Source: Apostichopus japonicus (Eukaryota > Echinodermata > Holothuroidea > Aspidochirotida > Stichopodidae). Taken from it: a stretch of 64,000 nucleotides of DNA. The position numbers were made by a program, and so were the translations under genes. This document shows positions 6,781 through 44,834 of the stretch, one piece after another (position 1 is the stretch's first letter; the number at the start of each line of letters is the position of its first letter). The stretch spans positions 18,991,001 through 19,055,000 of the forward strand of contig NC_092568.1 of assembly GCF_037975245.1 (NCBI RefSeq). Direction: 5' to 3'. The notes below the pieces were generated by a model, which saw only the letters and a program-made list of their open reading frames with translations, made no database searches and was not told the origin of the DNA.

Positions 6781-6790
6781 TTTTGATCAA

Positions 6791-8443
6791 TTTGTCACTC
6801 TTTGGGAATAAAATTTGTCTAGCTGTCTTTTTTTTTCTTGTTTTAAGAGACAAACAACGAAATCACCTCAAAACTTCCAGACAAAATTGATCTGCTTTTG
6901 TGCATTCTGTAGCCCAAACTCAAATACTAATTTGAACGTTTTCAACAAAAATCACTGCTTTAAATTACAATTTTTAAAAATTGTCCCCAAAATGGCTACG
7001 TTAAGTAACAGTTTCCTAATTTCTCCACAAAAGGACAACTTAGGTAACCAAAAGGGTACAACAAAATAGTAAAAGGAACTTGTTAGGAACGAAAACTGTT
7101 GCGTGTGCCCTGCGACAACCTCCCCACCCCCTCCCCTTCCCAGAAAAATAGCAGACATTTCTAAGCATTTCCATTTTTACGTATAGTTAACGCTGATATG
7201 TAACACTGAGTAAGTGAGGAGAAATTTAGAACTGAATAAAATGAATTACCAGCTTTTTAATGCTCATTTGGTGAAAACGATTGGAAAGCGTCTTAGATAT
7301 ATATAGTAATTGTTTACATTTTTGTTTACATTTTTATTTATTGTCTTAATCGTTTCATTGTTTTCGCTTGAGCTCCTGTTTTCATCCAATTTCCATTGTA
7401 TATATTCTATCCATTGGCTGAATAAATATCTATCTATCTATCTATCCATCTATCTATTTTGAGCAATGTGAAAGAGGTTTACTAAATTTATCGATAACTT
7501 CGCAACGCAAAACAAAGGTCTGTGTTAAAAGGAGTGAATTTATTTCAGTGGCACATGAATCTATCATAAAAGAAGGGAGTACAAGAAACCGGTGCATGGG
7601 ATCAGGAAGATCACCAGAAGTAGCTTAGTTTTGTAGATACTACGGTGGCCCAGATAGAACACTGAAAAATCTCGAAATTTGAGTGAACGACGCCTAACCT
7701 GGCAGTTGCGGGTAACTTGGGAGCTCTATTGAACCCCTGGTTGCAATTATCTACGCTGATTAAACTGAGTGTGGCTTATGATTACCAGAATAAAATTATA
7801 CTTACGCAAATACAGCATAGCATATATAGCACTCGAAAGCTATAAATGATAGTTAATTGCATTCTAAAGTTCAAAACAACTCGTTACGTGAAGGATCTTT
7901 ATCTGAATTGCTAGCTCAGGTCTGGGGTTCACTGGCTTTGTAAGCGCCTCCCATCATCTGTAATTTCATTGGTGGGAAAAGCAATGACGGCAAAAACTTT
8001 TTGCCACGTGATTAACAGCTGATAAAACACCCATGATTGTTTTCTTGAGGAAAATGGTCGTCTGCTCCTCTTCAGCAAATTAGCGTTAAACTTGTCGCTT
8101 TTGATTTGTGCATATTAACAGCGTTGTATTGCTTGTGAAGCAGGCTATTCTTAAATTGTACCGACGAAAGACATGATACACTTAAATTGAATACGATCTG
8201 GTTAGAAAGGTCAACATTGACGGAGAAATAATCAAGTTAAAGGTAAACAGGATCACACAATCTCGTTTTAACTAGGCTACTTAGCAGTGATATAAACTCT
8301 AACAGTTAACAGTGAGTTAGCGTGGGCTCTAACACTAGTAACAATACAGTAAGTCTTAGATAACCTAGGCCTAAGTTAGGCTTGGCCTGGGGTAAACCTC
8401 ACAAGTAACAGAACCTAGGCCTATTTTACGGTAAGAGCTACAC
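6791..8443. other. Intergenic, no gene recognised
   Basis: There is no supported coding exon. The stretch holds a tetranucleotide run (listed separately) and a CACGTG box at 8005-8010, about 2.1 kb upstream of the channel start codon. It could contain an untranslated first exon of the channel gene, but nothing in the sequence proves that. Confidence 0.5.
7427..7458. repeat. (CTAT)n microsatellite
   Basis: A short run of ctat units with one substitution. It directly follows a gaataaata word, an arrangement seen at the 3' ends of many LINEs and SINEs, so this may be the tail of a degraded retroelement covering roughly 7250-7460. Confidence 0.8.
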
Positions 8444-10144: not shown

Positions 10145-13100
10145 ATGGAGAACCATGCAACATCGATGTACATGCCAACTGAAAAGGCTAAACATGAACA
10201 TCCATCACTTGTCACAAAGAGAAGTGTGAAGTTTACCAAAAAAGAGGATCATCCCACAGTCACAATAAATGGATTGAAGGAAGGAATAGACCAGCCAGAT
10301 TGTCCACCAGTTAATGACCATGTAAGTACTGTAACACAGTTTTTTGGGGGGGGGTTTTGGGAGGGGGGTGGGGTGGGGTTTGTGTGCATGGGGGGGAGTA
10401 TCACTGTAAACAAACTTAAAATGATAGGTCTTCTGCACCAGACACTTCATTCTGTAGTGATTTAGGTAAATTTGCATCGTTTTTAGTAAACCAGATCTAC
10501 CTACAAAGGTATTACTAAGATCAAAACATGATTTTCTTTAACTTTGACACATTGTTTATAAGTGAATGTAAAGGACAAATTCTTATTTATAGCTTTATGA
10601 TTTGATCCTTTTATGATAAAATTACTTTGGAAAAGTATGCCAACCTCACTGTCTTGTTGTCCCTTCCCATCCCATCCCTCCCTTCTGCCCACATTTTGGA
10701 AGCTTTCTCACATCAGATGTCATTCTTCCCCCACCCCTCCCCCCGAAAAATATGCCATTCCATTTTCATCTGAACATGTTCCACCCATTGAGAACAGTTC
10801 TCAAAGGCATACAGTGGTGTGTAAGTAAAGACAATAGTTTGCTACAATACTTGGTTAATTGTTAAAAGTCAACAGAAGTCTTACAGTGTTAATTAACCTT
10901 AACAAAATAATTACAAACATCGGGTAATATATTTAGTAGCTTTTAATGCTGGTATATAGACTGACAGGTTTGGTTGGTCAAGCACAAGCACAAAAATCTA
11001 TGTTAACATTTATAAAACTGTGGTTTCTAGTAGCAACGAAGAAGATGATTAAACTTTGCCCTCATTGAATTCAACTCCTATCTTACCTGTAATCTTGATT
11101 ACTGTACTTTGTACAGTCTGCTGATAGGTGAAAACTTTAACCTCCATGCAATACACTCTGCATGTATGCAACAGGGTATACACTTTGTAATCACAATGTT
11201 GAGGTTTTGATGCAAAGTTTATACTAACTGAAAACTGAATATGTTGGAACATGCATGTAATAAAGTTTTAGAAAAAAACTCCACACAGAAAAAATACAAA
11301 ACTTGATATGATTTTATCCAAGCATTTACAAGGTATTCAAACTTAATTGTCATGTTTAAGTAATGTATGGTACTGTAGGTTTGCTCAAAGTACAATGTCA
11401 CAGTGCACATGTATCTGAGTTTCACATGTATTCAATTGACACTATTTCCACAAATTTCAAGATAGTAATTAATCTGAGCTGTTTTGATGTAACCCAAGTT
11501 TTAATTTACTCTTTTTTTTCACTGTGAACTACCTTTAATGTGGTTCTAATCACTATCAAGTCTCTAGCCTAATCAGCATGTTACCCAGCCCTCACTGCAG
11601 TATAGTAGCATTACAAAATTATTAAGCCAGAAAATATGTACTCATTTTTAATGATACATATTTTGTTCTGATTGAATGACAGGGTCTCCTTTATAACTTT
11701 CAACATAAGCATGTAACAGTAAATTAGTCTTATAGGTACTGTACAGAAAATCATTTGATCCCTATAGTAAACACCTTAAAGTTATCTCTATGCTATCCTA
11801 CACATTTCTATCTCCTATTTTTTTTTTATCTTGTATCTCTTCTGCAATTAGATTAGCATGTAGGATGTAGGGGGGAAAAGGATACACATTTGCCCCCCCC
11901 TCCCCAAAGAAGATCTTGGCTACACATGCTACTGCATCCACCATTGTAGTGATGACCAGGGGCCTAAAAAACACAACTTTTACAAAAATAAATAAGTTCT
12001 AGTGCTAATTTTCAACTTAAATGGAATTTTTTTTTATAAAATGTCAGAATAAAACTTTGCCCAATTTAAGTAACATAGTGTGGTCAATCCAAAGAAGAAA
12101 GGAAAAAACTTTGCAATGTTTTCAATTGTAGCTATTTGAAGCTCCATTTGATACCATATTCTATTCTGAACATATTAGCTAAAACCTATAATAAAAGACA
12201 CCATGGTGTCCTTTAATAGAGAAAATTATTTCATTCCTGGTGTTGATAGTGGTTCAAGTTCAGTTCTGTTGAACTCCATTATCGGTATATCAACTTGGTC
12301 AAATTGACAAATAGACAAATTTGACCAAAATTGACCAGGTAATGTACTGCATATTTTGAGCATCATAAGGACTTCCCAGACATGATAGTATTTTGAATTT
12401 TGAAATTCAACCAGCACCTTTTTTTTTATTTATTTGGAATGATGAATTCCTATATATTCTCTCTTTATTTTCGCAAGATGATAATACAAAAAATACATAG
12501 AAGATAGTATGAAAGCATCAGAATGTTTAAGTATACATACAGTCATCACAAGAACAATCGTATTTACAGATCCTTATAATTAGAACATTCCTAGAGTTGT
12601 TTAGAAATTACTGTATGTTAAAAAGTTTTGGTCTAGTTAGCTAATGGTCTCTATTACGTACTATCATGATTTATTCACCACTATACTGTGTTTCAGTGGT
12701 GAAGCAAGAGTTGCCGTTAGAGTTATAAGAACAATTTGTTTATCAGTGTAAACTGCAGATAAGCTGTTCAAAGATCAGGGGCTACCAAACTTTGTTGACT
12801 TTTGTAACTGATGTAGTGGCAACCACTACCAGTGATGCAACTACTTTGTTCCCCTAATAACAGCTTACTTATATGCAACACAATTAAGACACTATTGTTT
12901 TATGTACAGTAATTAGATGCAATTGAATCAAAGTTCAATATACATGCATAATGATGGCTTTGTTTTGGTATGATTGATATGACTAGATTTGATGTCAAAG
13001 AGTAACTGTTAGGTTGAATAAATAACAACCAATATCTAGTTCTGAGAAAATTTTAATATTATTGCCATTCCCTTTCTCTTGCCAAGCCAAACAAGACATC

Positions 13101-14717
13101 CCCAGTATCTTGTGTTTTGCACAATATTCAACTGATCAATTGAAAGCAAACACAGTCTACTACTGTTAGTGATTTAATTGAGTGTTCTTCTACCTACATT
13201 ATTTGATCTGTACCCGTTTTGTTGAGGTACTTGTTTACAAGAGTTGTCAACCAGTTTACAGGCAGTATTATATAAAGAGCAGTTACAGTTGAAAGTCTGA
13301 GCTGCATTTGCAATTGTCATTTTGTGAAGTCAAAGTGTCATATCTAGATTATGAGGCACAAAAACAAAACAAGAAAGTTCAATCTTTAACTTAAACATTT
13401 TAATGCATCAATGAACCACATGTGTTGAAAACAAACATTCAGTTCATGGTTTCTAGGAAGCTTCCCAAGTTTGGAACTACTGTAGCTGCTATAATTAGCC
13501 ACATCTAAATTCAATTTTTCAATGCACAATTTAAACCGTAGCTACAACAGATAAGAGGTTTATATATGATTTTTACAAACATCAAGATGTGACATATTCC
13601 ATGATTGCAAATTGTAAGATCTGTGCAAATTTAAGAAGTGGTAATTAAGTGTGCAAACGAGCTCTAGTTAGATAGTGTTCATGTTGGCCTTTTGTCTGAC
13701 TAGGTAGGTTGGAAGCTGTTTCTATTTCCCATATGTGTTAAATAACATATAAATCATACATAAATAATACATATAAGAGTAAAATCAATGACATTTTATA
13801 CAGCAGCACTTGCAATATTACAGGTGAATCAAACCAATTACATTGTAGTACAGGTGCAGCTGCATTTGTTCCAAGATGTTTGGCATAATTTATCTGTCGA
13901 AATATTTTCTTTTCTGTTCAAATTTCAGGATCTACACAAAGCCACAACTTTTGTAAAAGATGCCAAAGCAGGTCGAAATTTTAAATTCAAACTGGATAAG
14001 GTATCTCTGGACTTTTATGACACCTACAACAGATGGTACTTTGTGTACCTCCTCTATTTTTTCCTGTTTGTTATCATGGCTCTGGCTCTTTTTGAAGATC
14101 CAGCAATCACCAATCTTGAATTACCAATATGGGTAAGTATTATTGCAGGACATGTTAGATATATCTCTGCTTAATTCCTTGTTATTCTGCATTCAACTGT
14201 CAACATGCATTCAAGTTTTCATTGTTAATTATAACATCAATTTGTCCATAATTTACTAATATTACAGCAACCTGCACTAACAAGTGACAAAATTGATATC
14301 ATCATCAGCTTAGCCTTAAAGAAGCATTCCATAGATCAAACATATTTTAGGGGAAATATCTTGAAAACTAGTATAGCTATAGAAACACTAAAAAGCACCC
14401 AAATATTCCCCTCTGTTTTTAGGGGACTATTAAATTTTACAATCTGAAGTTGTCCTTTAAGATTGATATTTGTCATTTAATAATTTGATCATTTTCAAAC
14501 ATTTGGTCAATTCCATGAGTTCCCTGAAGTCTTTGTCTTGTTGTAATCTACATTTATTTACACTCTAATAATTGGACATTAATAAAAAGAATAATAAAAT
14601 GTAAGTTTAGCATATATTGTAATCTCATTGTAAGAGAGGGAAAATCAGTTTGTGACAGTCAAGGAAGAACCAGGCTAATGGATATACCTCTCATGTTTTG
14701 ACAGTATGTAATGCTAT

Positions 14718-14756
<39 letters not shown>

Positions 14757-17700
14757 ACATACTGTATGCTGCTTTTGTTGCACTTTCAACTCATATTTTA
14801 ATTGGAATCTATTCAACTTGCATACATATCCATGATCCTTATATTTCAGTAAAGTTGAACATGATCAAATCCACATCACATCCAAATGATATCATCCATG
14901 CTGCATCTTATCTTCTATTGGCTACCTGTATATGACTTTTTCATGGTTAGTATAAAATTGCTACAGTATGCATATGAGAGAACTCCATTAAGAGATGTAA
15001 GAGAGATCTTTAACATCCTCTAACTTGGTACTTTTGTAAAAAAAAAAAATTAAAAACATGGGATAAGGATGCTGGTATGAGAGGCAAAATTAAATTGTAA
15101 TTGTGAGTTAGTTTCTTTGCTGTTAAATTAACATTTATGTGTGGCACCTCAAGAAAAGTTATATCTATTAATTTGTTAAAAAAACGAGAAAGATCAACAG
15201 TGTAGCTTTCACAATATTTACTTTGCAAATTGGTGGAAAGTTATTAATAGCTACAAATTCAGTAGTGAATTGAAACCAGCAGGTTTGAGGTTAAATTTAG
15301 TCACTGGATCAATGCTTCAGATAAAACAGGTCTGTATTGTTTGAATACCAGCGCTATTAATATTGTATTGCTTAATCATATACAAACACTTGAAAGTCAA
15401 TTTTTAAAAACACATTGGTTTTCCTATTTTTTTTTTTTTTTAGAGTTTGGAATTTTGAAATCAAGATATTCATCTGTAGATAGGAGCTAATGTGACAAAT
15501 GTCAACAGAATCTCTCATCACTGACAGTAATTTGTTTTCAAAATAAAATAAAACAAAATAAAACAAAAACTGTTAGCAACTTTCTTATCCACTAAAGAGC
15601 CTGTGTAGAAGAATGTGTAAAAGTTAGTGGGCCTGACATTTTGATCCTAGCAGGATCATCTTCATCGGTTGAATGTCACAAATTTGTTTTATCTACAGAC
15701 GACAATGACCATAGAATTTGTCTGCCTCTGCTATTTCCTGTTTCGACTTGCACATAGCAAGAGATGTATGTCAGGGATCTTCTGGATGGGTGACATAAAG
15801 AACTGGATTGTTCTTTCCGTGAGCGTGGTAAGCAGAACTCTTTTCCAAGAATAATTCATAATTTTGAACATGTTAATGATATATTAGTTAAAAGCTGAAG
15901 ACAACGATTTTGTTGTAGTTGAAAATACTCGCATTGAAATAAATGATTTACTTCATGGTGTGCATGGGATCTTTAGCCCAACAACTTTACCTGGAATTTT
16001 GAAATCTACATTTTGAAGATCCTGGTGGGTTTGAATTATTTGAGAAATGGTTTCTTGCTCATTAGAATCCATCATGATGACAGAAAGCATGCAGTATTCA
16101 TGAACTACTATAAGGTCAAGACCTGACTCTGCACTAGGTTTTGAAATAACATTTGGCAAAAGAGGGATTCTACTTTCAAATCACTGTTCTCAATTATTTG
16201 ATGTTTTATTATAGTTTTTCTGATCTTGAAGTAAAAACACATAGTCACCCAGGTTTATATACGGTACACAAATACATTGGCACAGATGGCTCTTGCATCT
16301 GTGGTAATCTGTCAGAGTGTGTTTCTTCTTTTCATCTTGTCACAGAAAAAACAACAACAATCTTTAACTGTTCTCAGAGATTTAGATTTAATTACATGCC
16401 ATGGTACAAATGGCTCCTGTATTTATTTTGGCAAACTGTAGGTGTTCACTTCCATGGTATCAGATAAAAATATTGAAAGTGTATTAAAACATGTGTGAAA
16501 TTCACATTGTACTGCTCCAATTAAGGCTCCGTGCTCACAACCATGTTGATATGTTAGTTATGTGCATGTGTTCTGATCATTAAACAAAAAACAAATAGTA
16601 TTTAGATAAATTCATCAAGCAAAGTGATTCTGTTTTTTTTTTACAGATCACCTTGATTGACATGGTTGTATATGTCATATTGATCAACAAGGGAAAACCC
16701 TGGATAAGAATTGTAAGAATTCTTAGACCTCTCTTCATGATGAACTTCAAAGAGACAAAAGATGTAAGCAAGAAATTTGACTTCAAGTAATATCACTAAC
16801 AAGTATTCGCATTCAAGGAATTTGATCATTTCAATATACTGTATATATATTTATATTTGGAGGCTGGAAGTTTTTTCACTGTTCTTGATTTTCCAACTCA
16901 CTATAATTTCAATTATTTATATATACATAAAGCCTTTGTCGTTTACCTCCATTTCATTAACAAAAGTCCGTTCAAAGTATCTCTTTGGAGATCCGGCTTT
17001 AAGATTCACAAATGATTTCGAGTTGGTTAGCATCATGTTTGATCTCTAGAGTAAGACAAATATGTCACCAAAACAGAACTAGTATTGTTCGATACAGGTG
17101 ACAAACGCCTACAGTGGAATTAAGACCTTCCTCTGGACATACAATCAGCGTCCATAGCCTAGTGGTTAGGGTGTCCGCATATAAAGCGGTAGGCCTGGGC
17201 TCGAATCCCGGTGTAGACTGGAAGTTTTATCACTGTTCTTGATTTTCCAACTCACTATGATTTCAATTATATAGATATATATATATATCAGTATATATGC
17301 AATAGCATATCAGGCCTACGGTACGTGTGTAATGTCCTAACCGTATAGTATACATACATATTAGACACTTATATAGTGCTGCTACATCAAGATTGTAGCG
17401 CTTTGACAACTTAGTATCATCAAAGTTTAAATAAGGACGAGAAATGTGATAATTCAATAAGATTTCAGACATTTCCATGTCCTTTGAAAGTAAAAATGCT
17501 GTTAATTTCTTCAGCTTCGTCAAGCCTTCCGTAATATCAGAAGATCCCTCCTCGGCATCTTGAGTGTCTTGGTCCTGCTCTTTTTGGTCATCGGTTTGTT
17601 CGCCTTACTGGCCAGAGAAATTTTTGAAGATGAGTGAGTAATTTTTTACTTGATGAGCTTATGAAAAAAAACTTTCCTCTGACTTAAAAAACTTTGAGTG

Positions 17701-20700
17701 CATCTGATTGGGTATTTGTGAAAAATTTATCACATGTTCTTTTGGAAGTGAGAATGACATGAAACTTTTTACCACAAGAATCTTTGAGAGAAGGGGGTCT
17801 GATTAATTCTAGAGCCATTTCAAGCAATATCTGTTTGCTGATCATATTAAATAAATATCACCAATATTCCTCAAAACTGTAGATCTTTGTCTCACAATTA
17901 ATTAACATTTTTAGTGCTTCAGATGTGACACTATATCTCCAAGTTATTGGAACTTTAAGGGAAACTAAAAATTTCAAGTTTAAATTTTTTTGATACATAT
18001 GTGAGATGGAGACTTAGTTATTGGGTCAACTGGTTCCAGTTTTAAAATGGGTAATTCCTGAATTGTATAAGAATATTAAATTCATGGTAGAGGTTTGTCT
18101 GGATATCCATACTTCAGTTTATATGTGAACATTTCGTTAGTTTTATCAAAGACAGCTTTGGGGAACTGTAAAACATACCAGAAAGATTTTATCAGCACAA
18201 TTGCTTCTATAGGCCTAAATACATCTCCAGTTATCATTTTTTTTTAAATTGGTAAGCTTGCTCCTGAAAAGGATGTAATAAATCTGCAAAATGAGTGAAA
18301 ATTTCTTTTCAAAGGACTAAGGAAGGGACCATGGTGTGGATTAAAAGGTATTGTTGATGTATGACAATGTCACTTGGGCTAATTCAATGCATTTTTTTAT
18401 CTTCCTTTATTGCATTTATATTTCATCAAGCTCAGCTGTGAAACAGAAATGCCTACTATTTGGAATATTTCTTTTTCCGTGTTTATATATAGTGTCCTTT
18501 TGAAACCAGATGCATCCAATTATATGTCAGATTATTTTGAGAACTTTTGGGATCTCTACGTACTTGTGACAACAGCGAATAGTCCTGACATCATGTGAGT
18601 TAACATCAATCAATTGTTTTGTAAAGATCTCAGTTATATATATATATTGCTTTACATATATGTGATGATCATAGCAAGTTGCTCCCCAGCATTAACAACT
18701 GGCACATGGTTATCACTGAGTAATTAAATTGGAAATCATGAGGGAATCTTTCAACCAGATTAGAGTTTGAACCACTGATCTTAGGGATAAAACTCATCCT
18801 GATTTTTATCCCTCCCCAGTGATATATTTTATTCAGTCTTTCATACTTATCAAATGGTGTTATGGTTGTCATCATGCTAGAAATCAGGTTTGATGGCTTA
18901 TAGTCATGCACTGTCAATATAATCAACTCTTAGTAGGTAAGTAATTAAGAGTAGGCTAGGTAGTATGTATGTGTGTTAACTGATGAAAGGCGATTGTGGA
19001 TTCATATTAATGGGGTATGTACTGTGTATGTTCTCTGTGGTATAGCTAAAGCCATATTTATATCATATTAAACCAGGTTTGGTAATCTTTATACATTACA
19101 ATGACAAATTGATAAGTACATATCAGTGAAAGTCTATTACATGGCGACAACTTAATGTATTATACTGTACCAAATAGTGTATGTGTGTTATCACTGAGAA
19201 CCAAATTGAATTTTGTTGAAGAAATCCTAGCTATTACTAACATAAGACTTTTGTTTTAATAGGAAAGTGTTCTGGTTTCTCCGGTATAACTTGGACTCTC
19301 CTTTGAGATTGATTGAGTAGTAAATTTGCTTTGCGACAAGACTAATATCAGGCTAGAATCTTGAAAGAAACTGATAAAACTGTATTTTTTTTGTCCTCAT
19401 AGGATGCCAGCTTATGATGCCAGTCCATGGTACATGTTATTCTACATCATATATGTGATACTGTGTATCTACATCTTCATGAGCATATTCTTGGCTGTGA
19501 TATATAAAGACTACAGGAAACATTTGAAGGTATATACCAATCAGTCGCTCTAGATAATATTCAATCTGTATTGATTCTTTTCATATATTTCAAAGATTTT
19601 GTGTTGTAACTTATTAATATGCAGCTCATTAACAAAAGTACACAGATATGCACTTACCATGACAATTAAAGTAAATTTCCTTCTAAACTTGTCAGTTTTG
19701 TAAATTTGTACAAGTTTATTAATAGTTGTACAGTAAATGTCAGAGTAAGGCTTTTGTATAATAGTTGTTGTCTGTGATATTCCCTTCTGTGCTACAGTTT
19801 TCTGGGAAGATTAACAGCATGCTATCATTTCTATTTGTTTTACAATCCAGCATCTAGTATGTTACAAACTTTTATAATAATTTCACTTTATCTTGCCTGG
19901 TGGATTTTTGTAATGATTTGTCATGTCATTTCTTCTTGATCTGACAAATTACCATAAATATTCTAACACAAAATCTTATTGAAAGATCCATAATACAGAA
20001 ATGGGAAGTAAACATTTCAAATATATCTCAGTTCTAGGATTCTAACCGAAATGTTTATAACAAGCAAAAGGCATTTTTGAATTCACTGCATGAAAGCAGC
20101 ACAAACTCCGTACAAAGTAGAGTTATCTGATGATACTGATTTAACATTAACAGATTGTCCAGCAATACTACTTTAATTCCCAACTATTTCCTACTCTTCT
20201 AGTCTCCATACTATTTTACCACTGTTTTTTTTTTTTTTTTTTTAATAAACGTTCGTACATTTTCCTTCTTCATACCTTTAGGTTTAACTTTTTAACATAT
20301 GATTTCAGAATGCAGTGAATTGCTGTCAAGTGTACTAATCCCCTTGTGGGATTATTTAAGTTAGCAATTATGGGAAATTTTATCCAGCACGAGCATGAAC
20401 AATGTTGCTACATGTCCGTTAGATTCCTGTAAGTGTAGTACTTGTGCATAAGACAGTGCTGCAGGTGGTCTAATGTTCAAACCGTTTGACCATATGTCGT
20501 ATTTTAATTTATTCCAGAACGAAGTACAGAAGAGCGTGTTTGTGAAGCGCCGCAACTTGGTATATGCATGGGACCTCTTGAAAGTATGGAGAGGTGGTGC
20601 TTTTGTGATGCCGTGGCAACGGTGGCACGCCCTGATGAAAAGTGTTGAGCCTTCGAAAAGTATTCTTCAACTAAAGCTCATTTGGAAGGTTCTGGATAAA

Positions 20701-23700
20701 GATGAGGATAATAACATAGGTACTAGCTGAATAACTCAAACTTTAAATTTTCATAAAATACTGAAAAATATTGTTTGTATATACAAAGACAGAGCTCTAC
20801 ATGTGTGTACTTGTGCTATTCATTTTTCTCCTTTTTTTATTTTTTTAATAATACCAGATAAGTTGATTCCATTGATGTTGTTGTTGTTGTTATTGTTATT
20901 GTTATTATTTTTTTGGGGGGGAGGGTCAATTACATGGGGACATTGGTTCAATTAAAAATAATCTTCAAAATATATGTATTCTGGTAGAGGATCATTGTGG
21001 ATATTTCTTCACTTGCATGTCATGTTCTCTTTAATTTGTTCACAACATTTGACAGACAAGAGAGCATTTATGAAGACAGCAGATATCCTCAATGTGAAAA
21101 TTATTGAAAAATCAAGATATGTACCAATTTGGGAGAAGCATTTTCCTAGAGTTTACAACTCAGCAGCTAGCCAGATTATCGTCAAAGGAATAAAACACAA
21201 GTAAGTTTTATTATTACTGAAAAGAGTATATGGCATTTATGAAAAATTATTTATGCAGTAAGACACATACTTTCATTTCACAGACTTCTCAGACTTTGTT
21301 GGAGAGATATTGTTGATGCCATCTCTAAAGAAACTGTAAATTTGTTCTCTATCTTGATGAACAAACAGGACAGTGTAAGATTAGCTCTTGTAGTTACCAA
21401 ATAGGTTGACCTCATAAATGTACATGAAAAATTTACAATGGGTAGCTGAACAATCTAAATCAGTAAAAAGATTAATTTTGTGTTTGCCTAAAAACACTAC
21501 CCAAGACTAAAATGTAAATAATTTTAAAAGAAAAATGTTGATATTATCTTGAATATGTTTCTAATATGTGTCATAATTTAATGTAGTTTGTTTGTAAGAT
21601 GTCAAGGAAATGTGCCATAACTATATTTAAAGACTCAAAATAGGATATGAATGTATCTGAAGTCACAAGCATTGACTCAAAAGTTAACATGTACTAGCTA
21701 AAAAAATAATAAACTTGTTCAAAACATCTATTTCTCTGGAGTTCTGAATTTCAAATAATTCCAATATGTCTCATTGAATGGAAATGTTTTCTCACATTGG
21801 CACAGTAAAATGCTCCCCCCCCCCCCTTTGGGCTGAAAGGGTGCACATGAGGGACCATTATTAACTTGGAGGGATTATATTAATGCCACATATGGTTGAT
21901 TACATTCAACCAGAATTGTCTTTACTAAAGTTAGTAACAACTGTAATGATACAATATTATGTGCTTGCTGTTAACTAACATTTAATGAATATCTCATCGT
22001 TCTCCCCAGGTTTTTTGGGTGGTTCTTTGACCTTCTGATCATCCTCAATGCCGGGTTGATCGCATTCCGCATCTCATCAATTGAGTGGTTCTTTCTGACC
22101 ATTTTCAGTCTGGAAATTGTCTTCAAATTGTATGCTTTGGGGTTTTACCGGTATTTTACAAATCCCTGGGATGTGTAAGTATACCTGAAAAACATTGTGC
22201 AGTAAATTTAGAGTGGTTTATATGAGGCTTTTAGATTTAAATTATACAGATATCTACCACAGTGTAAAATTGAAAGTGATACTCTGGGCAACAAAATCCT
22301 ACATGCATTGTTTCCAGATCAGATGAAATGTAGCTGTTTGCCAGAAAGATTCATGAATTGAATTCAAACTACATATCCTCTTGCTGAGAAACTGACCGAT
22401 CCACATTACCATTTTTGACCAAAAAAAGAAAATCCATATTTATCCACTTTTAAAAAAAATTTACCACTTAAAACCTATGATATAGAACCTTACATGCAAG
22501 TGGCATGTGGAAAGGAAATCTGAGGAATGCCATTTAAAAAATGTAAATTAAGTGTAACATATCCTTTTTAATGTTAAAACTTCTTGGTCTGACCATTTAC
22601 CATTTACATCAGAACATTTTATTCTGTAAAGTAGAAAAACAATTTACCAAATGGTCAAAGAAACAAGTTTGTACTGCTACATACTTTTTTTTTCAATTTG
22701 TTTTAATTAAAGTTAGAGATAGCGAGAGATATTTTTTTTTTTTATATTCAAGTCTTTGAGTATACACTTTACAGTTCAACAATTCCTGTAGTGTCCGATT
22801 CAAACAGTTTTTTACTTTATGAATTATTGTATTATATATGATGATGGTTTATTGATTGTAACTCTTTCTGAATGCTGGCTTTATATAGTTACAGATGATT
22901 TCTGCACAACTATATCCTTTACTTTTGCATATGATTTATTACAGGTTTGATTTTACTGTCATCGTCCTTGCTGTTATTCTCTCCATCGCAGCCAAGGCAG
23001 CTAAAGATAGCAGTAAGATTCTTGTTATTTTCATTTCTGAATTTTTCTAAGTTTTCTACAATATTCTACGTCAACTCTTTTGTTGCTTGGCAGGATCTTT
23101 CTCGGAACCCAATTTAGCTTTACACTTTCAAAATATTCTTTTTGAAACTTCTGTATTTGTTTCAGACACGCTTGAACAGAGATCATTAGACATCATTCTT
23201 GTTCTGAGGGTGTTGAGACTGGTTAGGATATTTAATAACTTTGAAAAGTAAGTAACTCATTTAAAGAAAGTTTGTCATAAGTATAAAAAATTGTTTGGTG
23301 TAGAATAAGTGCCTTTTACTAAGATTTATGGAAGCTATCAACGATTCATATTTGATTCCTGTTAATGTGTTTTCTGACTGTTTTATTTTCTTTTAGGGAG
23401 GGGGGAGGGGTTGAGAGAATTATTTTGAGGGCCAGGTCATTTATATCATGTGTATCTGCATAAGATAACATAGGAATTAACATTGAATTCAGGTAACACA
23501 CAATATCTATAGTTCCTGAATTCTTGAAGATATGAAAGAATTTTACTTCATTTGTGAAGGGAGCAGAACCAATGCATATGTAACTAACACCACAAAAACA
23601 TATTTTTGTTTGAAAAAAAAAAACCCACCAGGTTCCAGGTGATCATGAAAACTCTCCGTAATATTGGCCCTTCCATATTCTCCTTTGGAGGTGTTATATT

Positions 23701-26700
23701 GGTAAGTTTACAAATAATAGCTAATTAGTGGCATTCTCTGATCACTCATTAGTTTACCAGTTTATGCTGTTTGAAGTTCAGATGCATGAGAGACAGTTTC
23801 ACATTTATTGCACATCAGAAGCAGAAGACTGGACTAATTCTGATATAACTAGCATTTTCGTTTTGTGGTTGTGTGTGTGTGGGTACCCATATCCTAGATC
23901 ATGCATGTCTTTGTGTGTGCTTCGGGGAGGGGGAGGGGGTGGGGGGGTTTGGAGAGGTCATACAAACCTTCAGTGGCATTTATCCAGCTTATATGCTATG
24001 GTCAAGGTGTGTCTTATCAGCTTCTGAACATGAACTGTCAAGGAAAAATATGAAATATTTGTTGAGATTTACTGGCAATTTAGAACCCTGTGACTTAATA
24101 CTTTGATTCAAGCGGAATTTTATATGATTAAATATGATTGGTATGCAAGACTCATATCATGGATAATGTACAAGTTTATAGGTAACCTAAAAGGAAGTGT
24201 GCAAGGACATGTAAACATGATGCGGTTTCAGCCTAAATGGAACCCACAAATATGATCACTTAATTTATTTTGATATCCGACTTTCTCCATCTATTAAGAG
24301 TGACAAACCGGCCCCGGCCTTCATTCACATCCCCTTTACCAGGTTTGAAGACCTTTGGTGATCGTAGCTACCAACTCGTAGCACCTTGCTGGTGGAACTT
24401 ACTTCCAGTACAATTAAGATCATTGGACTCTCAGCTCGAACATTTTTTAGCAAGGGCGTAGGAACCGGGGGGGGGCTGGGGGGGCGCCAGCCCCCATTGA
24501 AAAATATGGGGGGCCGAAGTATCATTCCGCCCCCTCGCTTCCCAAGTCAGAAAACCCCTTTTTCATTTCCAAATGTGAAAAAAATCTCATTTGGAGCACC
24601 AAATTGCATCTAAGGCCAGGTGAAAATGCAAAATTATTTACAAAATGGAGTGGGTGTTGAAGTGTGTTATATTGCACCAAATTGCATCTGAGGCCACCTG
24701 GAAATGCAAAAAAATTCCAACCCCCACTCAAAAGTACCTTCCTACGCCACTGTTTTTTAGCATGCCATTTTAGCACTTTGCCAAACTATTCTATTTTCTA
24801 AGTATTATTAATTGGTCAATTTAACTTGGCAGCTGTAAAGTGCATTGAGCAAACCAGTCCTGGTTGGATTCTGTGCTATATAAGATTATTATTGTTGATA
24901 ATAAACTATTATTTCCTTCAACAGGTCATCTACTATGTATATGCGATAATCGGAATGGAGTTGTTTGCAGGAAAGATCACATATTATGGCTACCCTTCTG
25001 AAGAAACAACAGAAACCTTTAACAAATCTTTGTTGTACTGCGGCAACCAAAAACTTAATGGAACCGAGTTTTATCGAGACCATTACTGCAATAATAACTT
25101 CAACAATGTGGCCAAGGCATACATTACCTTGTTTGAGCTGACCATAGTGAATCAATGGCATGATATCCTTTGTCTGATCAAGTGTTTCTTTCATGTTCAT
25201 CCTTTTCCTGGACAATGTCTATAGGTACATAATGATCATACTTGTAGTGCAACAGCATAAGTAGTACATCTTCCCTCGTAAGGGTACAAGCACAAGTTAT
25301 AATTGGAAGCATGAGTCTTTAATCCATGCTATTAGTATATAAACTAGCTTTTCAAAATTTCATGTGTACAAGTGACAGTACAAGCCATGCAGGCGAGTTC
25401 ATGCAGGTTATATGCTAGGATACATTCAGGGATATGGACTCACTACAAGTGACAGTACAAAGCCATGCAGGCGAGTTCATGCAGACTATATACTGTATGC
25501 TAGGATACATTCAGGTATATGGACTCACTACAAGTGACAGTACAAAGCCATGCAGGCGAGTTCATGCAGACTATATACTGTTTGCTAGGATACATTCAGG
25601 TATATGGACTCACTACAAGTGACAGTACAAATCCATGCAGGAGAGTTCATGCAGACTATATACTGTATGCTAGGATACCTTCAGGTATGACAGTACAAAG
25701 CCATGCAGGCGAGTTCATGCAGATTATATGCTAGGATACATTCAGGTATATCAGCTCACTACAAGTGACAGTACAAAGCCATGCAGGCGAGTTCATACAG
25801 GCTATATCTGCTAGGATATACATTCAGGTCTATGAACTCACTACACAGCTGATTACGATTATGTGAATGATAGTTATATATATGAGTTTATTAGTTCATG
25901 GAATACTATTTCACACATTTAGCTGAGATGGCTCACACACTTAAACTAAAGGATTCATTATCTGCATATTAAGAGTCTAAATTATCTTGAACATATTTGC
26001 CCAAAGTCACCATTATTGTCTGGATGGCTGTGGGATATATTAGTGTTGTAACAACCCCCCCCCCCCCCACCCAACCTGACCTGTGTATAAACCCATATAT
26101 TGTTCTTTTATGTAATGCATAATTAATTAACCATTAACATTTTATACCACTCATTTAAGCATCTTTTATTTACATACTGTCTCAAATATATATCTTGCTA
26201 TGTGAAGGATTTCAACTAGCACACTTGCTGAGATATGTACAACAACAAGCCTAATTTCTTTAACTCTGTCTCACTGATCACCAGTGGATTTGTTGCAGTT
26301 ACTAGTAAAGCAGCAAGGTTATACTTTCTCTGCTTCCACATTACCTTGGTCATCATTATTATCAAGTAGGTATACCCATCGTATGTCCATCTTGGACACC
26401 ATATTCCTTATATTTGAAGAGATTTCTAATGAGGGATCTAATAAAATTCATAGAGCTGCAGTTTAATGGTCAAATAGCAATTTTTTATACTGGATGACAA
26501 CAGTTTTCATGTTTATAATTATGTTTCAACTTGTTTCCTTATCACACTCCTTCAGATCCTTCTTACAAACCTATTGTGTTCATTATATGGACTATTTTTA
26601 ATCAAATCTCTCTCAACTTGCAAAAGTAGTTAATTCACAAATTAAATTGCATTTATTAAAATAACTAGTGAGATAAATATAGATATTTATATTGAAAGAA

Positions 26701-29700
26701 AAGAGTTCTGTATGGCTTTTTAATTAAGTTATAATTAAAATGACTTTTCTATTCAAGGAAAATAAAAGGTAGTTAACATTTCACTGTATAGATGCAAGAT
26801 CAAATTCCTTATACATGCACCTTAATATTATTGGGTTCTGTTTATTCAGAATTGCATTGTGGATGCTTTAGCTTCATAATTATGCTGCTAATAGCCACAA
26901 TGGGTAACAATACAGTACTTCCAATAAATGTAAAACAAGAAACTGTCAGGAAGTAAAAATTCCTGACAGTTTTCACAAATGAAAGGTTTCATGAATTGAA
27001 GAACAGATCTTACGGCAGTGTAAAAATTCCTGACAGTTCAATAAATGTAAAACAAGGAGCACCATGTTAGTTTTCACAAATGAAAGGTTTCATGAATTGA
27101 AGAACAGATCTTACGGCAGTGTAAAAATTCCTGACAGTTTATGAATTATTGACTTTTGTGCAGTTTTTCTCTCTATTTCGAATTTTATTTTGACTTTTCT
27201 TCTCCAGCATCTTCATTGCATTCATTTTGGAAGTCTTTATGGTTGAATATTCATTATCAAAAAGCAGTTTTGAATCAGAAATTGAGAAAAAGATTGAAGA
27301 ACTTGGTCTTAGAGCCAAATTGTAAGTAAACAGAATATTTATTTTTTTAATTTTAAGAAGAATTCAAAATTATGGATGTTTAATATAGATTTTTGTTTTT
27401 AAGACTCTCAACTATTTATGTGAAGATGCTTGCTGTGTTTCCATTGTGACAGCTTTTAATGCACAACCTGTTGCACTCATCTGACATTGTGTGTAGGCTG
27501 CATCCTTGCTATGTCATAGTAAGAAATTCTTTAAAGATTTCAATATTGTTTGATTGGTTCTTTACTCATTATAAAATAAGTGTTAAAAAAAATACACTTT
27601 ATCAATCGTGCATGAGTACAACTAGTCTGCCTCTGGCAAGTACTTAATTTAATTGTTAAAAGTAAATAATAAAACAGGAAAAGTTGGCAGTTTAATTATT
27701 GTAATATAGTAAGCAAGTAATTTGTATTATTTTCTTGAAAATAATTTGTGTTTGTTTAAATATTTCTGATAATTGAATTTAATAACATATATAACAAATC
27801 TTTTTTTGCAATGCAACCCAACCTGTTGCTAGACAGTTTTGTTAATGTTGGATCTTCCAAGTTTTTTCTTAGTTTTTTGACAAAATGCTGATACTATCAT
27901 CAATCAAAGGAAGAAAGGAAATGCTCATGATTTTTCACATAGATGTTAACAATTTCCAGTCAAAATAATTGTTGGTTCATCTAAACGTAGATGCCTCTCA
28001 TCAAGGCAAATTCACAACATATAGTCTGATACTATTACTGATATTGCAACATTTTGTCTCAAAAGGTTTTTATGTAATCATATCAAACTTATGGAATGAA
28101 AATACTTGTTTTATTAAAAATTGAAAATTAAGCCAATCTTATCCTTGATCAGATTTAAAATATTACGTTAGATTGAAAAATTATAACCCTTTGATATTTA
28201 ATGTAGCAGTTTGACAGCAACTTGTAATGCATTTTGCAACAAAAACGACAAAACTGGTTTTGATGGATCGGTTTTGTAGCAATTGCACATGGGTGGAACC
28301 ACATATACCCCTAGAAAATATTCACTAACAGACAGAATGTTGAGAAAAATCCAAGTGCATAGAATATAAATATATGACATATATGCACTGTACAACCTAA
28401 GCAGTTAAAAATTCTTCAATGTTGTTTCAAAAGTTGCAAAATATTGCACCTTTCTTAGTATTTATTCACCCTCCATTTTACCAAAGTTTCTCAAATGAGA
28501 AGCACATTCCTCAGACTCCCTTAGACCCTTCCTCCACCCCAACCCCCCCATCCATTAGCCTCTCCCCCATTTTAATAATTGTGCTTGCACCCCTGCTGTC
28601 TGATGTAGCCATAGGAGGCGGGGGCGGGGGGGGGTTGCAGCCCCTCAATCAAATATTTTTGTGAAAATTTGGGCAATATGCTGAGAATTTTTCTGGCACC
28701 TACTGAAAGAAAAATAAATTGCAATGTGTTTTTCAATGATGAAACTTATTATCATCGTTATTATTGTAACGACTTCCCCAAAAATGGTAATAACATGTCA
28801 ACTGATTGTATGGAATTGGCATGCGATGTAATAACCGTTCATGCCTATATGATATGTACATTAAGATGTTGAATGCGCGAAAAATTTTGGTTATATTTTT
28901 CGGGCAAGTCGTTACAGCCCCCCCCCCCCCCCCCAATTCAAATTGGGCTCCTATGCCTATGGATGTAGCAATGATATCAGTCAATTACTTTTACAAGCAG
29001 TTAATGTGTATGACTTAGATATAATGCCTGAAGGTTGTTTGATTCATCTGAGAAGTAATAACTATAAAATCCCAATGAGGACAGCAGATTTGCACATCAT
29101 AATCTGTGAACATTTGATTCATGCTACTAACAGCCTATGGAAGGGACTTTCAAGTTTCAATTTGATACATGTGATTCATAACCCACTAACAAAAACAAGT
29201 TTACTAAAATTTGCAGATGTTTCAGGTAATTTGAATCTACCTAGCTAGAGTAACTCATCATTATCATGTTTGTATAGTGTGTATATTGACAGTTCATCAC
29301 ATCTATTGTACATTTACATATATATATTCAGATATAAATTTAGACAACTATTTCTATTGTCATATTGTCCAGTCATTGCTCCCTTACCATTCAACATATT
29401 AATAAATAGAGACAATCAGCAAAATATTATAATGGGTCATTTTTATTCCCTTTCTTTTTGAGGATGTCTTTCACCCTGGGTAGTAATAATCGGCTTGAGA
29501 GGAATGTATTGTCCATTACACCATTTGTCTGTCCGTTGTTGCTTATTAAATACTTTTAGGGAAAAGTGACCCCTGGTTTTGTGGGCATTTTATGCTACAA
29601 GGGGCCTATTTGAGTGTATCCAGGGGCCAATAGACCAAATGTGTCATTAATAACTTTTGATGTAAAGAATTATTTTGCAGCAACAAGCAATATGTTGCAT

Positions 29701-32683
29701 GTATGATTCATTTTTCCTCTACAAAAAAAACTTGTGTCTAAGAGGAGTTGCTTGACTGGGCAATACTATGCTGCATTAAAAATAACTCCTGGCATAGTTT
29801 TTCTGTGACCTGTGGTGGCTGTTTGGCAGGTTATGGGGACCCTTTTGCATGCACCCAGACTCATGTTCACCCATCATTATGATTATCAATTACTTTTTAG
29901 AACTTTGCACATATATGAGCTAATCCAGACATCACTTTAAGTAATGAAACTCAACTGTTCAGAGGGTCATTTCTCAAAAAAAAAATTTTTATTGTTCAAC
30001 AGCATTTATCAAAATTATTTAATATTGTACCTAATTTAACTAATCTTTCAAATATAGAATCCCAGTCTATATTAATTACAACACACAGCATCTGTCACAC
30101 AGCATCTGGTAGATTCCTCCCTTTACTGATTCAGTGATACACTCCCTATTTCTACATGCAAAAACCGAAGCAGCATGCTTACATTGCATCCATTGCTACC
30201 ATTTACACCATATGTGGTTTGGAGTCTTTGTGATAGTTATTTTCATATTTCCATTCCAAAGTTTATGAACAGACAAAATGTTATAAGCTGTGCTCTACGC
30301 AAGACCATATAGAAGGCTGAATGCTCATTCTTTACCCAATTAAGTGACATAATAGAAAGCCACTTACTTTGTGCCATAATAGAAAGCCACTTACTTTGTG
30401 CCATAATTAACCCTCACATCAGAAATACTTCTACACTTGTGGTATTTTTTCTCCACAAATGAAAGAAAAACATTTTTGTGGTAATGTTTGTGAATTGTAT
30501 GGGCACACCTATTTAGGAATTATATGTTATTGACTCCAAGCCACATTCCACATCCAATGAGGTGTTGTCCTCATTTTGTGAGCACATGCTTCCACTGGCA
30601 ATTTGAAAAAGATATATATTTATATAGATATATGTATATATAAATATAAATATAATAGGGGAAAAAGCCCTGTATTGATCACTTGCAAAGTCTGTATATG
30701 TTTTTTTTAATATTATGATAATTATGATATATGTGATCTGATGGCTCTCATGTAGTCAAAGTTCATTGTTCCAAGGCAGTGATTGGTATTTAATCTTTTG
30801 TAGTATATGACCTGTTATTTGCCAATGATAGAAATGTTTGAATTGGTCTTACCCAGTAGTTCTTACATTGTTTATAAAACAGTCAATGAATCATGCAATG
30901 TTATAGATTAAATCAAGCTTGTTAAAAATTACAAAAAGCATGAATAAAATATCACCAAGCAAAAGAAAAATCAAAAGGAAAAAACTTTCACTGATAAAAA
31001 GTAGCTTAACTTTCATGGTTGTGCTTCATGTAATAAACTGTGCAAGAAATGTGCTGCATACTAATCCAATATTGAGCACACTTCATATAATTTCAATCTA
31101 ATCCTTTTCTTTTCTTGTCACTTTTTCTAATCTTTAACCTCAGTATCACCACACAGCACTAAAACTGGTTATTGTCAACTATAATCACACTAACATTAGA
31201 AAATTTACTTCCTTGATTTTAAATTTTGTTTTGCAACTCTAATATCTATAGCTCATCATAATTTGTTCTTTCATTGCTATGATATAAAGTTTATATATAG
31301 CAACTTAGGTTGGCAAGTCACAAAGACAGCATTATGTTTAACAAGTCTGATGATAATGGATGGAAAATGGGAATTTTTGAAAAGTAATTATATTCATCCA
31401 AGTCTTGGCCTGAAACCCATAAAATATGTACCAGTTAGTGTACAAACTTTCTTTTTTGATAATACAATGCATTTTCTTGGTACCCTTTTAGTTGTAATAA
31501 TCATCAGTGTGGAAACAGTTTTGTACCTTCTATCCCCAACCCCCCCCCCCCTCCCGTTGATCTAGATATCATCGTAGTTACCCTACTCAGAAGAAGTCTT
31601 GGTATCTTCATTGCTAGCTGAAGCATACCAAAATTAAACAAAATTTAATCAGATATATTTTATAAGGAATACTCACGACTAACAATTTTTCAATGAAGAG
31701 TTGTTGTTTGGAACAAGCTGTTGAAAATAAGAACATATGTGGTCTGTCTTATATTTGAAACATCTAAAAGCTGTGTGCTTTACAGCAGCAGAAGTAACAG
31801 GTGAGGTATAGGATATACCATCACCTTTGTAACTTATACATAGATACCATGACAAACTCAAGTGTTATAAGTTATTATCATGAAATCACTGCTTTTGGAG
31901 ACATTGAACTGATGCTACATGAGAGCCATTGGGTCCTGAGGTTGTTTGGTGTTTTGTTTTTTAACTCCACAGTGAAAATAACAATTTCACGGATAGAACA
32001 AATCTCACCCCTCATATGGAAGTTGAAGATGGTCCAGCAGGGCTAAGCAATGAAGATTTGGATCTTGCAAAATTTCAACTCGGAAAAAGTATGTATAATA
32101 ATCTATCTTCGTATGTGTTCTACTCACTGGCAAAAACGGAATGTTTTAGATAGTGCTTCAGAATAATCAGTAAAATAAAGGGAGGCTCGTAAAATTAAAC
32201 TGAAAAATGTGGTAAGGGGTCTACATCATCATCCTGGTCTTCCACCAAAGTGCCAGGAAGTCTTAATACTTCTTTCCTCCTAGTCATTGCTGCATGGCTT
32301 GATAATTTCTTTGCCGCTACTTGCAGTATTCATTAAAGTTTAGTTGATTAGTTAGGATCATCATCTCAAAACAGAAGAAACTGATCTGACGCTTACTTAC
32401 AAAATAAATTATGCAAATTAAGTGGTTGCTTTCACCAGACATTTTCTGCCTAGAAAAGTGTTGATACGTTTCCTCATGAATATATATTCGTTGTTATTTT
32501 TCCCACTATTTGTGTTTTTCATCGTCAGGTTCCAATTCGGTGCAATCGATCCTACAAAACATGTTCGAGGGCGAGTTGGACGAGGAAGACATAGGCCCAA
32601 CTGACATAGAGGACCTGGACTTGCTGGACCCAGACCAGACAGATTCTGCTCCCTTCCCTTTTACCTTAGACAATGTGGTTTAA
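10145..32683 (+). CDS. TPCN3: Two-pore cation channel, TPC3-like (18 coding exons, complete)
   Basis: A two-pore channel: two six-helix repeats forming a Na+/Ca2+ channel of endolysosomal or plasma membranes. Coding exons are 10145-10321, 13929-14132, 15699-15827, 16647-16763, 17515-17633, 18493-18594, 19403-19529, 20518-20719, 21056-21200, 22010-22174, 22945-23012, 23166-23247, 23632-23701, 24925-25162, 26275-26365, 27208-27321, 31973-32088 and 32529-32683. All phases agree and give 806 residues plus a stop. Helix IS1 is near residues 96-114. Filter I, TTANSPD, is at 275-281. Voltage-sensor II has Arg533, Arg536 and Arg539. Filter II, VNQW, is at 644-647 after two NxS/T sites in the luminal loop. 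The LRNIGP...FGG linker and three S4-II arginines favour TPC3 over TPC1 or TPC2. A tag stop at 10112 supports the start. All introns are GT-AG except 25163-26274 (AT-AC). The family is certain; the paralogue is likely. Confidence 0.9.
10322..13928 (+). other. Channel intron 1 (3.6 kb)
   Basis: A GT-AG intron. It has a strong G-rich tract just after the donor (about 10340-10393) and several C-rich stretches, but no exon or repeat family I can name. Because the N-terminal tail of TPCs is poorly conserved, an extra small exon cannot be excluded. The flanking exons do join in phase 0 without one. Confidence 0.55.
14719..14752. repeat. (AT)n microsatellite
   Basis: An uninterrupted at dinucleotide run in channel intron 2 (14133-15698). 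Confidence 0.95.
15541..15672 (-). mobile_element. Penelope-like 3' end fragment
   Basis: Read on the minus strand, this matches the 3' end of the Penelope fragment at 45590-45710. Shared parts are a GATCC..GGATC hairpin (15643-15657), atgtcaggcc, cttttacacattct, ctacacaggctct, and a ttgctaacagttt word leading into a TTTTATTTTATTTT tail. A (C)CGATGA word (15662-15668) sits before the hairpin, close to the CTGATGA core of hammerhead ribozymes. It lies in channel intron 2 and abuts the acceptor of exon 3. Confidence 0.75.
16861..16930 (+). repeat. SINE 3' tail, truncated copy
   Basis: About 60 bp from gctggaag through cactgttcttgattttccaac to tttcaattat match the 3' part of the tRNA-derived SINE at 17146-17290, with few differences. 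The tRNA-like head is missing. It lies in channel intron 4. Confidence 0.75.
17146..17290 (+). mobile_element. tRNA-derived SINE
   Basis: The head looks like a tRNA gene, with an A-box-like TAGCCTAGTGG (17154-17164) and a B-box-like GGCTCGAATCCC (17198-17209). A CCGC/GCGG anticodon-type stem sits between them. The tRNA-like part is followed by a non-tRNA body and an AT-rich tail (to about 17290). The body is repeated without the head at 16861-16930, which argues for a SINE family and against a functional tRNA gene. It lies in channel intron 4. Confidence 0.8.
24255..24900 (+). mobile_element. Degenerate CR1-like LINE 3' fragment
   Basis: Around 24270-24460 the frame reads LKTFGDRSYQLVAP...WNLLPVQLRS, which resembles the end of CR1/L2-type LINE proteins, where a ...FGDRSF...WNSLP... 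block is common. After the inserted MITE the frame resumes (ACHFSTLP). The tail has gtaaagtgcattgagc and gctatataagattattatt, typical CR1-type 3' ends. It lies in channel intron 13, just before exon 14. No active protein is present. Confidence 0.7.
24451..24752. mobile_element. hAT-type MITE nested in the LINE fragment
   Basis: Its ends are CAAGGGCGTAGGAA and the reverse complement of CAGTGGCGTAGGAA. It is flanked by an exact 8-bp duplication, TTTTTTAG, at 24443-24450 and 24753-24760. Removing the 302-bp insert and one duplicate restores the LINE reading frame (EHFLACHF). It has a G-rich left flank and no open frame of its own. Confidence 0.88.
25163..26274 (+). other. U12-type AT-AC intron of the channel gene
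   Basis: Exon 14 ends in ...VNQWH plus one base. The intron then starts with ATATCCTTT, the exact consensus of the minor-spliceosome AT-AC donor. It ends in ctcAC, and a branch-point-like TTCTTTAAC lies at 26256-26264 (consensus TTCCTTAAC, one mismatch), about 11 bases before the end. Splicing this way gives WHVITSGFVAVTS, the length expected between filter II and helix IIS6. No GT-AG alternative gives both the right phase and the right length. Confidence 0.88.
25368..25836. repeat. 85-bp tandem repeat array (about 5.5 copies)
   Basis: Units of about 85 bp containing gacagtacaaagccatgcag, cgagttcatgcag and gctaggatacattcagg recur in direct orientation. One unit is shortened, near 25690. The array lies inside the AT-AC intron of the channel gene. 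Open frames seen here are only a by-product of the repeat period. Confidence 0.95.
26922..27140. repeat. Imperfect tandem duplication with a perfect hairpin
   Basis: The stretch cacaaatgaaaggtttcatg...acggcagtgtaaaaattcctgacag occurs twice, about 101 bp apart. At its left edge AAACTGTCAGGAA and TTCCTGACAGTTT form a 13-bp inverted repeat around a short loop (about 26940-26972). It lies in channel intron 15, just before exon 16. Confidence 0.85.
28380..28510 (+). repeat. Dispersed repeat, copy 1
   Basis: The words tacaacctaa, agttgcaaaat, ttgcacc, accaaagtttctcaaa occur in the same order and spacing as in 62010-62130 (MEN1 intron), with many substitutions. The family is unknown, and a C-rich stretch follows in both places. 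Confidence 0.6.
28610..28961. mobile_element. hAT-type MITE with 8-bp target duplication
   Basis: It starts CATAGGAGGCGGGG and ends CTCCTATGCCTATG, which share a short inverted terminus. An exact 8-bp repeat, GATGTAGC, flanks it at 28602-28609 and 28962-28969. G-run and C-run inner flanks and the lack of an open frame match the other MITEs in this window. Confidence 0.85.
30348..30407. repeat. 27-bp tandem duplication
   Basis: The word cataatagaaagccacttac is repeated exactly with a 27-bp period (starts at 30348 and 30375), followed by a third partial start. It lies in channel intron 16. Confidence 0.9.
30609..30655. repeat. AT-rich microsatellite
   Basis: An imperfect tatata/atata run in channel intron 16. 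Confidence 0.8.
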
Positions 32684-44832: not shown

Positions 44833-44834
44833 GC

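What the first reader, a model, noticed from the sequence alone, without database searches (positions are those of the whole stretch)
25163..26274. AT-AC minor-class intron directly after pore filter II of a two-pore channel gene
The donor is a perfect ATATCCTTT, the 3' dinucleotide is AC, and a TTCTTTAAC branch-point-like word lies about 11 bases before the end. Only this splice gives a protein of the right length and phase (VNQWHVITSGFV). AT-AC introns are rare. Voltage-gated sodium and calcium channel genes are known to keep some, and a two-pore channel at the same functional position raises the question of shared ancestry. An annotation pipeline that expects GT-AG would truncate or mis-join this gene here.
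Basis: partly seen in the sequence, partly recalled or inferred. Interest (0 to 1): 0.75.

Follow-up and report, generated by a model that had tools for sequence, protein, structure and literature searches.

The report
AT-AC minor intron in TPC3 gene
A two-pore channel gene of an animal carries, right after its second pore filter, what looks like a genuine rare AT-AC intron of the minor spliceosome; this is a new example of a known intron class, and not at the site where sodium and calcium channel genes keep theirs.

Summary
Window 25163-26274 is a U12-type AT-AC intron: ATATCCTTT donor, TTCTTTAAC branch word with its A 11 nt before the end, AC terminus. The gene is a complete 18-exon TPC3 (closest solved chain zebrafish TPC3, E 5.8e-170); its other 16 introns are GT-AG. 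Of 157 open in-frame splice pairs tested around the junction, 25163/26274 fits zebrafish TPC3 best; the best GT-AG pair (25182/26284) adds three residues just after the filter. The genome holds U11, U12, U4atac and U6atac. Kinship with Nav/Cav domains II/IV is not supported: 0 of 4 domain II and 0 of 3 domain IV filter exons read have an intron there, and TPC1/TPC2 lack this intron over the parts aligned. The Nav/Cav minor intron sits at domain I S1. Unexpectedly, that S1 site and phase hold an ordinary GT-AG intron in TPC3 domain II, and TPC3 introns coincide with Nav/Cav intron sites more often than chance (3 of 12 exact, P 0.007; 0.0004-0.06 in three other alignment modes, post hoc). No RNA evidence was available.

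The parts
10145..32683 (+). TPC3 gene, coding span from ATG to stop, 18 exons, 806 aa
   Evidence: exon model (last exon starts at 32529); PDB match 6v1q E 5.8e-170; two PF00520 stretches; genome hits
24925..25162 (+). exon 14: S5 of domain II, turret, pore filter II (VNQWH plus first base of the next codon)
25163..26274 (+). U12-type AT-AC intron 14, phase 1, 1112 nt
25163..25171 (+). U12-type 5' splice site ATATCCTTT (9 of 9)
   Evidence: pairing with this genome's U11 and U6atac
26256..26264 (+). U12-type branch word TTCTTTAAC (8 of 9 to TTCCTTAAC), branch A 26263
26273..26274 (+). 3' terminal AC
26275..26365 (+). exon 15: rest of the filter loop and start of S6 of domain II
25182..26284 (+). 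best rival GT-AG intron (gives WHDILCLINGFV in place of WHVITSGFV)
25222..25224 (+). first in-frame stop (TAG) if the AT-AC intron is retained, 20 codons after H
   Evidence: (open frame 24802-25224)
21201..22009 (+). GT-AG intron 9 at the start of domain II S1: same alignment column and phase 2 as the U12 intron at domain I S1 of Nav and Cav-B

Best explanation
A real U12-dependent AT-AC intron in an animal TPC3 gene. U11/U12 recognise the ATATCCTTT donor and TTCTTTAAC branch site, U6atac replaces U11 at the donor, and the minor spliceosome joins 25162 to 26275, giving a continuous filter II to S6 segment (VNQWHVITSGFV). If it is retained, reading stops after 20 codons, so full-length TPC3 with S6 of domain II should depend on minor splicing, as others showed for Scn5a and Cacna1c. 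Shown here: sequence elements, frame, homology, presence of the snRNA genes. Inferred from established knowledge: actual splicing, dependence on U6atac, any regulatory effect. Origin: most simply an old intron of the TPC3 line, since loss of such introns is reported to far exceed gain; whether it was ancestral and lost from TPC1/TPC2 or gained in TPC3 cannot be decided here.
For: Elements and frame. Spliced alignment to zebrafish TPC3 allowing both classes picks it, 29.8 score units above the best GT-AG-only model, with hand-set scores whose splice-site terms reward a U12 match. Protein fit alone: 300 versus 275 for the best GT-AG pair and 284 for the next best of any kind, among 157 open in-frame pairs. 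All four minor snRNAs have a match over the Rfam cut-off. The donor pairs with this genome's U11 (-4.5 kcal/mol) and U6atac (-5.6), while 16 of 16 other donors of the gene give -1.5 or weaker and -0.5 or weaker. Same-genome controls: Nav and Cav-B domain I S1 introns are ATATCCTTT...AC. Phase 1 agrees with the reported bias of minor introns away from phase 0 (PMC10639083, passages). Loss over gain: PMC2831892, passages.
Against: No RNA reads. No TPC3 gene of a second species could be examined, so conservation is untested. U12 pairing of the 3' region is not discriminating: best 9-mer -5.6 here, while introns 10 and 13 (GT-AG) give -7.4 and -6.8. In-frame alternatives exist.
Confidence: 0.93

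Rival explanations
1. The exons are joined by the major spliceosome using GT at 25182 and AG at 26284; the U12-like words are coincidental.
For: The pair is in frame and stop-free and is the best GT-AG choice.
Against: Donor AA|GTGTTTCTT matches the major consensus poorly; it inserts three residues in a stretch that has 16 residues between the filter W and the LYF/LFF/MYF word of S6 in zebrafish TPC3 and in TPC1 and TPC2 of this genome; it leaves a 9-of-9 U12 donor and 8-of-9 branch word at the homologous boundary unexplained.
Confidence: 0.04
2. Both are used: the AT-AC splice yields the working channel and a nearby GT-AG pair yields a variant with altered filter exit, or the intron is regularly retained as an off switch.
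For: In-frame GT-AG pair; retention of minor introns in Scn5a/Cacna1c after U6atac loss (PMC8767276, abstract and passages).
Against: No transcript data; weak rival donor.
Confidence: 0.15
3. The intron shares ancestry with a post-filter intron of Nav/Cav genes.
For: A GT-AG intron lies one nucleotide downstream of the equivalent site in domain III of two Cav genes.
Against: 0 of 4 domain II and 0 of 3 domain IV filter exons read have an intron there; the domain III introns are GT-AG and in another phase, and Nav domain III has its intron after W+12; the Nav/Cav minor intron is elsewhere.
Confidence: 0.12

Closest known systems
U12-type AT-AC intron of Nav1/Nav2 and Cav1-3 genes at domain I S1 (PMC6259924, passages)
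   Same: Same splice-site words and AT-AC ends, 6TM channel gene; found in this genome too (donor and acceptor in Nav and Cav-B; acceptor side only in Cav-A and the Cav3-like gene)
   Different: Located at the start of S1 of domain I in phase 2, not after a pore filter; the TPC3 intron is after filter II in phase 1
Two-pore channel 3 (zebrafish TPC3, PDB 6v1q)
   Same: Homology over query residues 61-790, identical VNQWHV filter word
   Different: Intron structure of the zebrafish gene was not available here
TPC1 and TPC2 genes of the same genome (contigs C15 and C1)
   Same: Same family; each has an intron within 13 codons after the filter II tryptophan
   Different: These are GT-AG introns at other positions (TPC1 after W+4, phase 0; TPC2 in codon W+13, phase 2); no U12 intron in the parts aligned
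GT-AG intron after filter III of Cav-A and Cav-B
   Same: Same codon relative to the filter tryptophan (W+2)
   Different: Phase 2 rather than 1, major class, domain III

Membership tests
U12-type (minor) intron | 5' splice site RTATCCTTT | tested here: met
   9 of 9
U12-type (minor) intron | branch site TTCCTTRAC close to the 3' end | tested here: met
   8 of 9, A 11 nt before the end
U12-type (minor) intron | AC or AG terminus | tested here: met
   AC
U12-type (minor) intron | host has the minor spliceosome | tested here: met
   U6atac, U11, U12, U4atac: one match each over the cut-off among the candidates scored; proteins not searched
U12-type (minor) intron | excision depends on the minor spliceosome | not testable with these tools
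   needs RNA and knockdown
Two-pore channel TPC3 | two 6TM Ion_trans repeats and closest homology to TPC3 | tested here: met
   two PF00520 stretches; TPC3 E 5.8e-170 against TPC1 2.4e-70 and TPC2 9.7e-48; no tree built
Nav/Cav minor intron (domain I S1) | position in the codon 13 before the conserved S1 Asn, phase 2 | tested here: not met
   the AT-AC intron lies at filter II; the S1 site in TPC3 domain II holds a GT-AG intron
Nav/Cav domain II/IV post-filter intron | intron directly after filter II or IV in Nav/Cav | tested here: not met
   0 of 4 domain II and 0 of 3 domain IV filter exons read

The most novel reading that the evidence does not exclude
TPC3 preserves intron positions older than the split between two-domain and four-domain channels: its domain II S1 intron is the same ancestral intron as the Nav/Cav domain I S1 minor intron (converted to major class in TPC3), and the AT-AC intron after filter II is the still-minor form of the intron that became GT-AG, one base shifted, after filter III of Cav genes. 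Minor introns would then mark the ancestral single 6TM domain.
Probability: 0.15. Interest if true: 0.75.

Novelty: new member of a known kind. Interest (0 to 1): 0.4.

Why it matters
It places a minor intron in a two-pore channel gene, a link that my searches of the held papers did not find (listings and term counts only, so an entry in a database or supplement is not excluded). It predicts that full-length TPC3 needs the minor spliceosome, and warns that GT-AG-only annotation will add or lose residues at the filter. The coincidence of the TPC3 S1 intron with the Nav/Cav minor-intron site makes the question of whether minor introns predate channel domain duplication testable with existing genomes.

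Tried and rejected
Two other ATATCCTTT words in the gene (22559, 22912) do not mark minor introns: both lie inside GT-AG intron 10. The GT-AG alternative at 25182 fits worse. The same intron was sought in TPC1 and TPC2 of the genome: absent over the parts aligned. Exact sharing of positions between paralogues, aligner artefacts included: TPC3-TPC1 2, TPC3-TPC2 2, TPC1-TPC2 0; the AT-AC intron in none. Paper searches for two-pore channels with minor introns: 0 papers, 136 papers, 30 listed, none of those listed with both TPCN1 and U12-type or AT-AC, 342 papers by any two of five terms, the 12 listed have no TPCN term, one paper (listing only), 51 papers, 15 listed, none with TPC3 and exon-intron together, 30 papers, 10 listed. 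Wu and Krainer 1999 is not held, so mammalian positions other than domain I S1 rest on recall and were not used. No second eukaryote genome was searchable, so conservation could not be tested. One search translated the wrong frame and is not used.

Weaknesses of the position test: introns were placed by my own aligner with hand-set scores. Before counting I dropped as aligner artefacts 7 of 11 Nav domain I introns, 3 of 12 TPC1 domain II, 5 of 11 TPC2 domain II, 1 of 7 Cav-B domain I and 2 of 9 Cav-B domain IV; only the Nav rows were dropped. Cav-A domains I, II and IV and the Cav3-like gene were not in the test. The hypothesis was formed after seeing the S1 match. In the fast mafft mode the S1 match was lost and exact-match P was 0.18 with six reference domains, and 0.06 with nine (S1 match present). 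All three TPC genes together: exact 5 of 41, P 0.017 in the first mode, 0.16 in the fast mode. In one search the last exon start was one base low and one base high; the right start is 32529; this touches only the last 50 or so residues.

Full report
What was checked. The bases at 25163-26274 read ATATCCTTTGTC...AATTTCTTTAACTCTGTCTCAC, 1112 nt. Joining 25162 to 26275 gives ...LFELTIVNQWHVITSGFVAVTSKAARLYF... without stop or shift. A model of the whole gene has 18 exons from 10145 to 32683 and 806 residues; a separate spliced alignment to zebrafish TPC3 recovers most of the boundaries but adds spurious small exons at both ends and in the S2-S3 stretch of domain II. The protein has two Ion_trans stretches and is closest to zebrafish TPC3 among solved structures (E 5.8e-170; TPC1 2.4e-70; TPC2 9.7e-48), so I name the gene TPC3; no tree was built. 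The genome is 671.6 Mb in 35 contigs; the tools give no species name, and I take it for an animal from its TPC, Nav and Cav genes.

Is the splice class right. The genome holds a match over the Rfam cut-off for U6atac, U11, U12 and U4atac, one each among the candidates scored. Among the 17 introns of the gene only this one has a U12 donor, the other 16 are GT-AG, and it alone pairs well with the genome's U11 and U6atac. Pairing with U12 was not discriminating: best 9-mer of the 3' region -5.6 kcal/mol here, while introns 10 and 13 reach -7.4 and -6.8. Enumerating GT-AG, GC-AG, AT-AC, GT-AC and AT-AG pairs with donors 25080-25229 and last intron bases 26200-26344 left 157 open in-frame pairs; 25163/26274 scores best against zebrafish TPC3 (300), the next best is GT-AC 25172/26274 (284), the best GT-AG pair is 25182/26284 (275). 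With the U12 option off, the aligner takes the last and writes WHDILCLINGFV. The donor word occurs 12,168 times in the genome on two strands (reversed-word control 9,577), about 1e-5 per position and strand, so chance at the required position is negligible; as free-standing words in the window, donor and branch motifs are not remarkable enough to prove an intron.

Consequence. Retention gives 20 more codons and a stop at 25222-25224, removing S6 of domain II. Others report that U6atac loss causes minor intron retention and lower Nav1.5 and Cav1.2 protein (PMC8767276, abstract and passages). Dependence of TPC3 on minor splicing is an inference by analogy.

Comparison within the family. TPC1 (contig C15) and TPC2 (contig C1) were read by spliced alignment. 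After filter II, TPC1 has a GT-AG intron after NNWHVIM (after W+4, phase 0) and TPC2 one in the glycine codon of DVYSRDTKG (W+13, phase 2). No minor intron was called in either over the parts aligned (the start of TPC2 was not). TPC3 shares two exact intron positions with TPC1 and two with TPC2, the AT-AC intron with neither.

Comparison with Nav/Cav of the same genome. Labels Cav-A (C20), Cav-B (C22), Cav3-like (C19) and Nav (C13) are mine, by similarity. Positive control: the domain I S1 intron is ATATCCTTT...AC in Nav and Cav-B, and its acceptor side reads TTCCTTAAT...AC in Cav-A and TTCCTTAAC...AC in the Cav3-like gene, whose donors were not fetched; this agrees with published Nav and Cav genes (PMC6259924, passages). 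Filters: 0 of 4 genes in domain II and 0 of 3 in domain IV have an intron just after the filter (Cav3-like domain IV not located). Domain I: intron after W+6, phase 0, in Cav-A, Cav-B and Nav; none in the Cav3-like exon. Domain III: Cav-A and Cav-B have a GT-AG intron in codon W+2, phase 2; Nav has one after W+12 (Cav3-like not located). The TPC3 intron is in codon W+2, phase 1. So the idea of a shared domain II/IV position fails, and the nearest candidate is a major intron one base away in domain III.

An unexpected coincidence. In alignments of the 6TM domains, TPC3 intron 9 (GT-AG, 21201-22009, start of domain II S1) falls in the same column and phase as the minor intron of Nav and Cav-B domain I S1. 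Counting all, 12 TPC3 introns against 35 distinct sites (45 introns, nine Nav/Cav domains): 3 exact (circular-shift P 0.007, null mean 0.44) and 5 within one base (P 0.005, null mean 1.2), the AT-AC intron being one of the latter; TPC1 1 of 15 exact (P 0.44), TPC2 1 of 14 (P 0.40) (first alignment mode). In the other three modes the TPC3 exact-match P is 0.007, 0.0004 and 0.06, and with the smaller reference set it is 0.02, 0.02, 0.02 and 0.18. This is a post hoc, small test with hand-dropped rows, told under Tried and rejected, so I treat it as a lead.

Verdict. A sound observation of a new instance of a known intron class, in a gene family that my searches of the held papers did not link to it. 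It is not evidence for a shared minor intron with Nav/Cav pores. Interest moderate; the S1 coincidence is what deserves follow-up.

Noticed in passing
window 25367-25845: Tandem repeats of about 85 bp (TRF: 3.9 copies at 25367-25688, 2.0 copies of a 78-bp unit at 25688-25845) fill the middle of the AT-AC intron; by eye, the post-filter intron of TPC1 (L004 about 6290-7480) is filled with a different tandem repeat.
   Followed up: partly
window, both strands: RTATCCTTT occurs 8 times in the window against a mean of 1.85 in shuffles, 0 of 100 shuffles reaching 8; I tied only the one at 25163 to an exon edge.
   Followed up: partly
window 22912-22920: ATATCCTTTAC ends about 24 bases before the last base of GT-AG intron 10, whose 3' region gives the strongest U12 snRNA pairing of all 17 introns (-7.4); probably chance.
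   Followed up: partly
G000 C13 about 9773440 (L023): In the Nav-like gene the intron at the end of domain III (NQQKKK|L), a site where mammalian genes are recalled to have a second AT-AC intron, was read by the aligner as GC-AG with a GTATCTATG word just inside it.
   Followed up: no
G000 C13 9758000-9778000: The Nav-like filters read D, E, E, A, resembling the invertebrate Nav2 type (recalled).
   Followed up: no
window 4072-5808 and 43429-44970, minus strand: Long open frames matching reverse transcriptase RVT_1: retroelement remains on either side of the gene.
   Followed up: no
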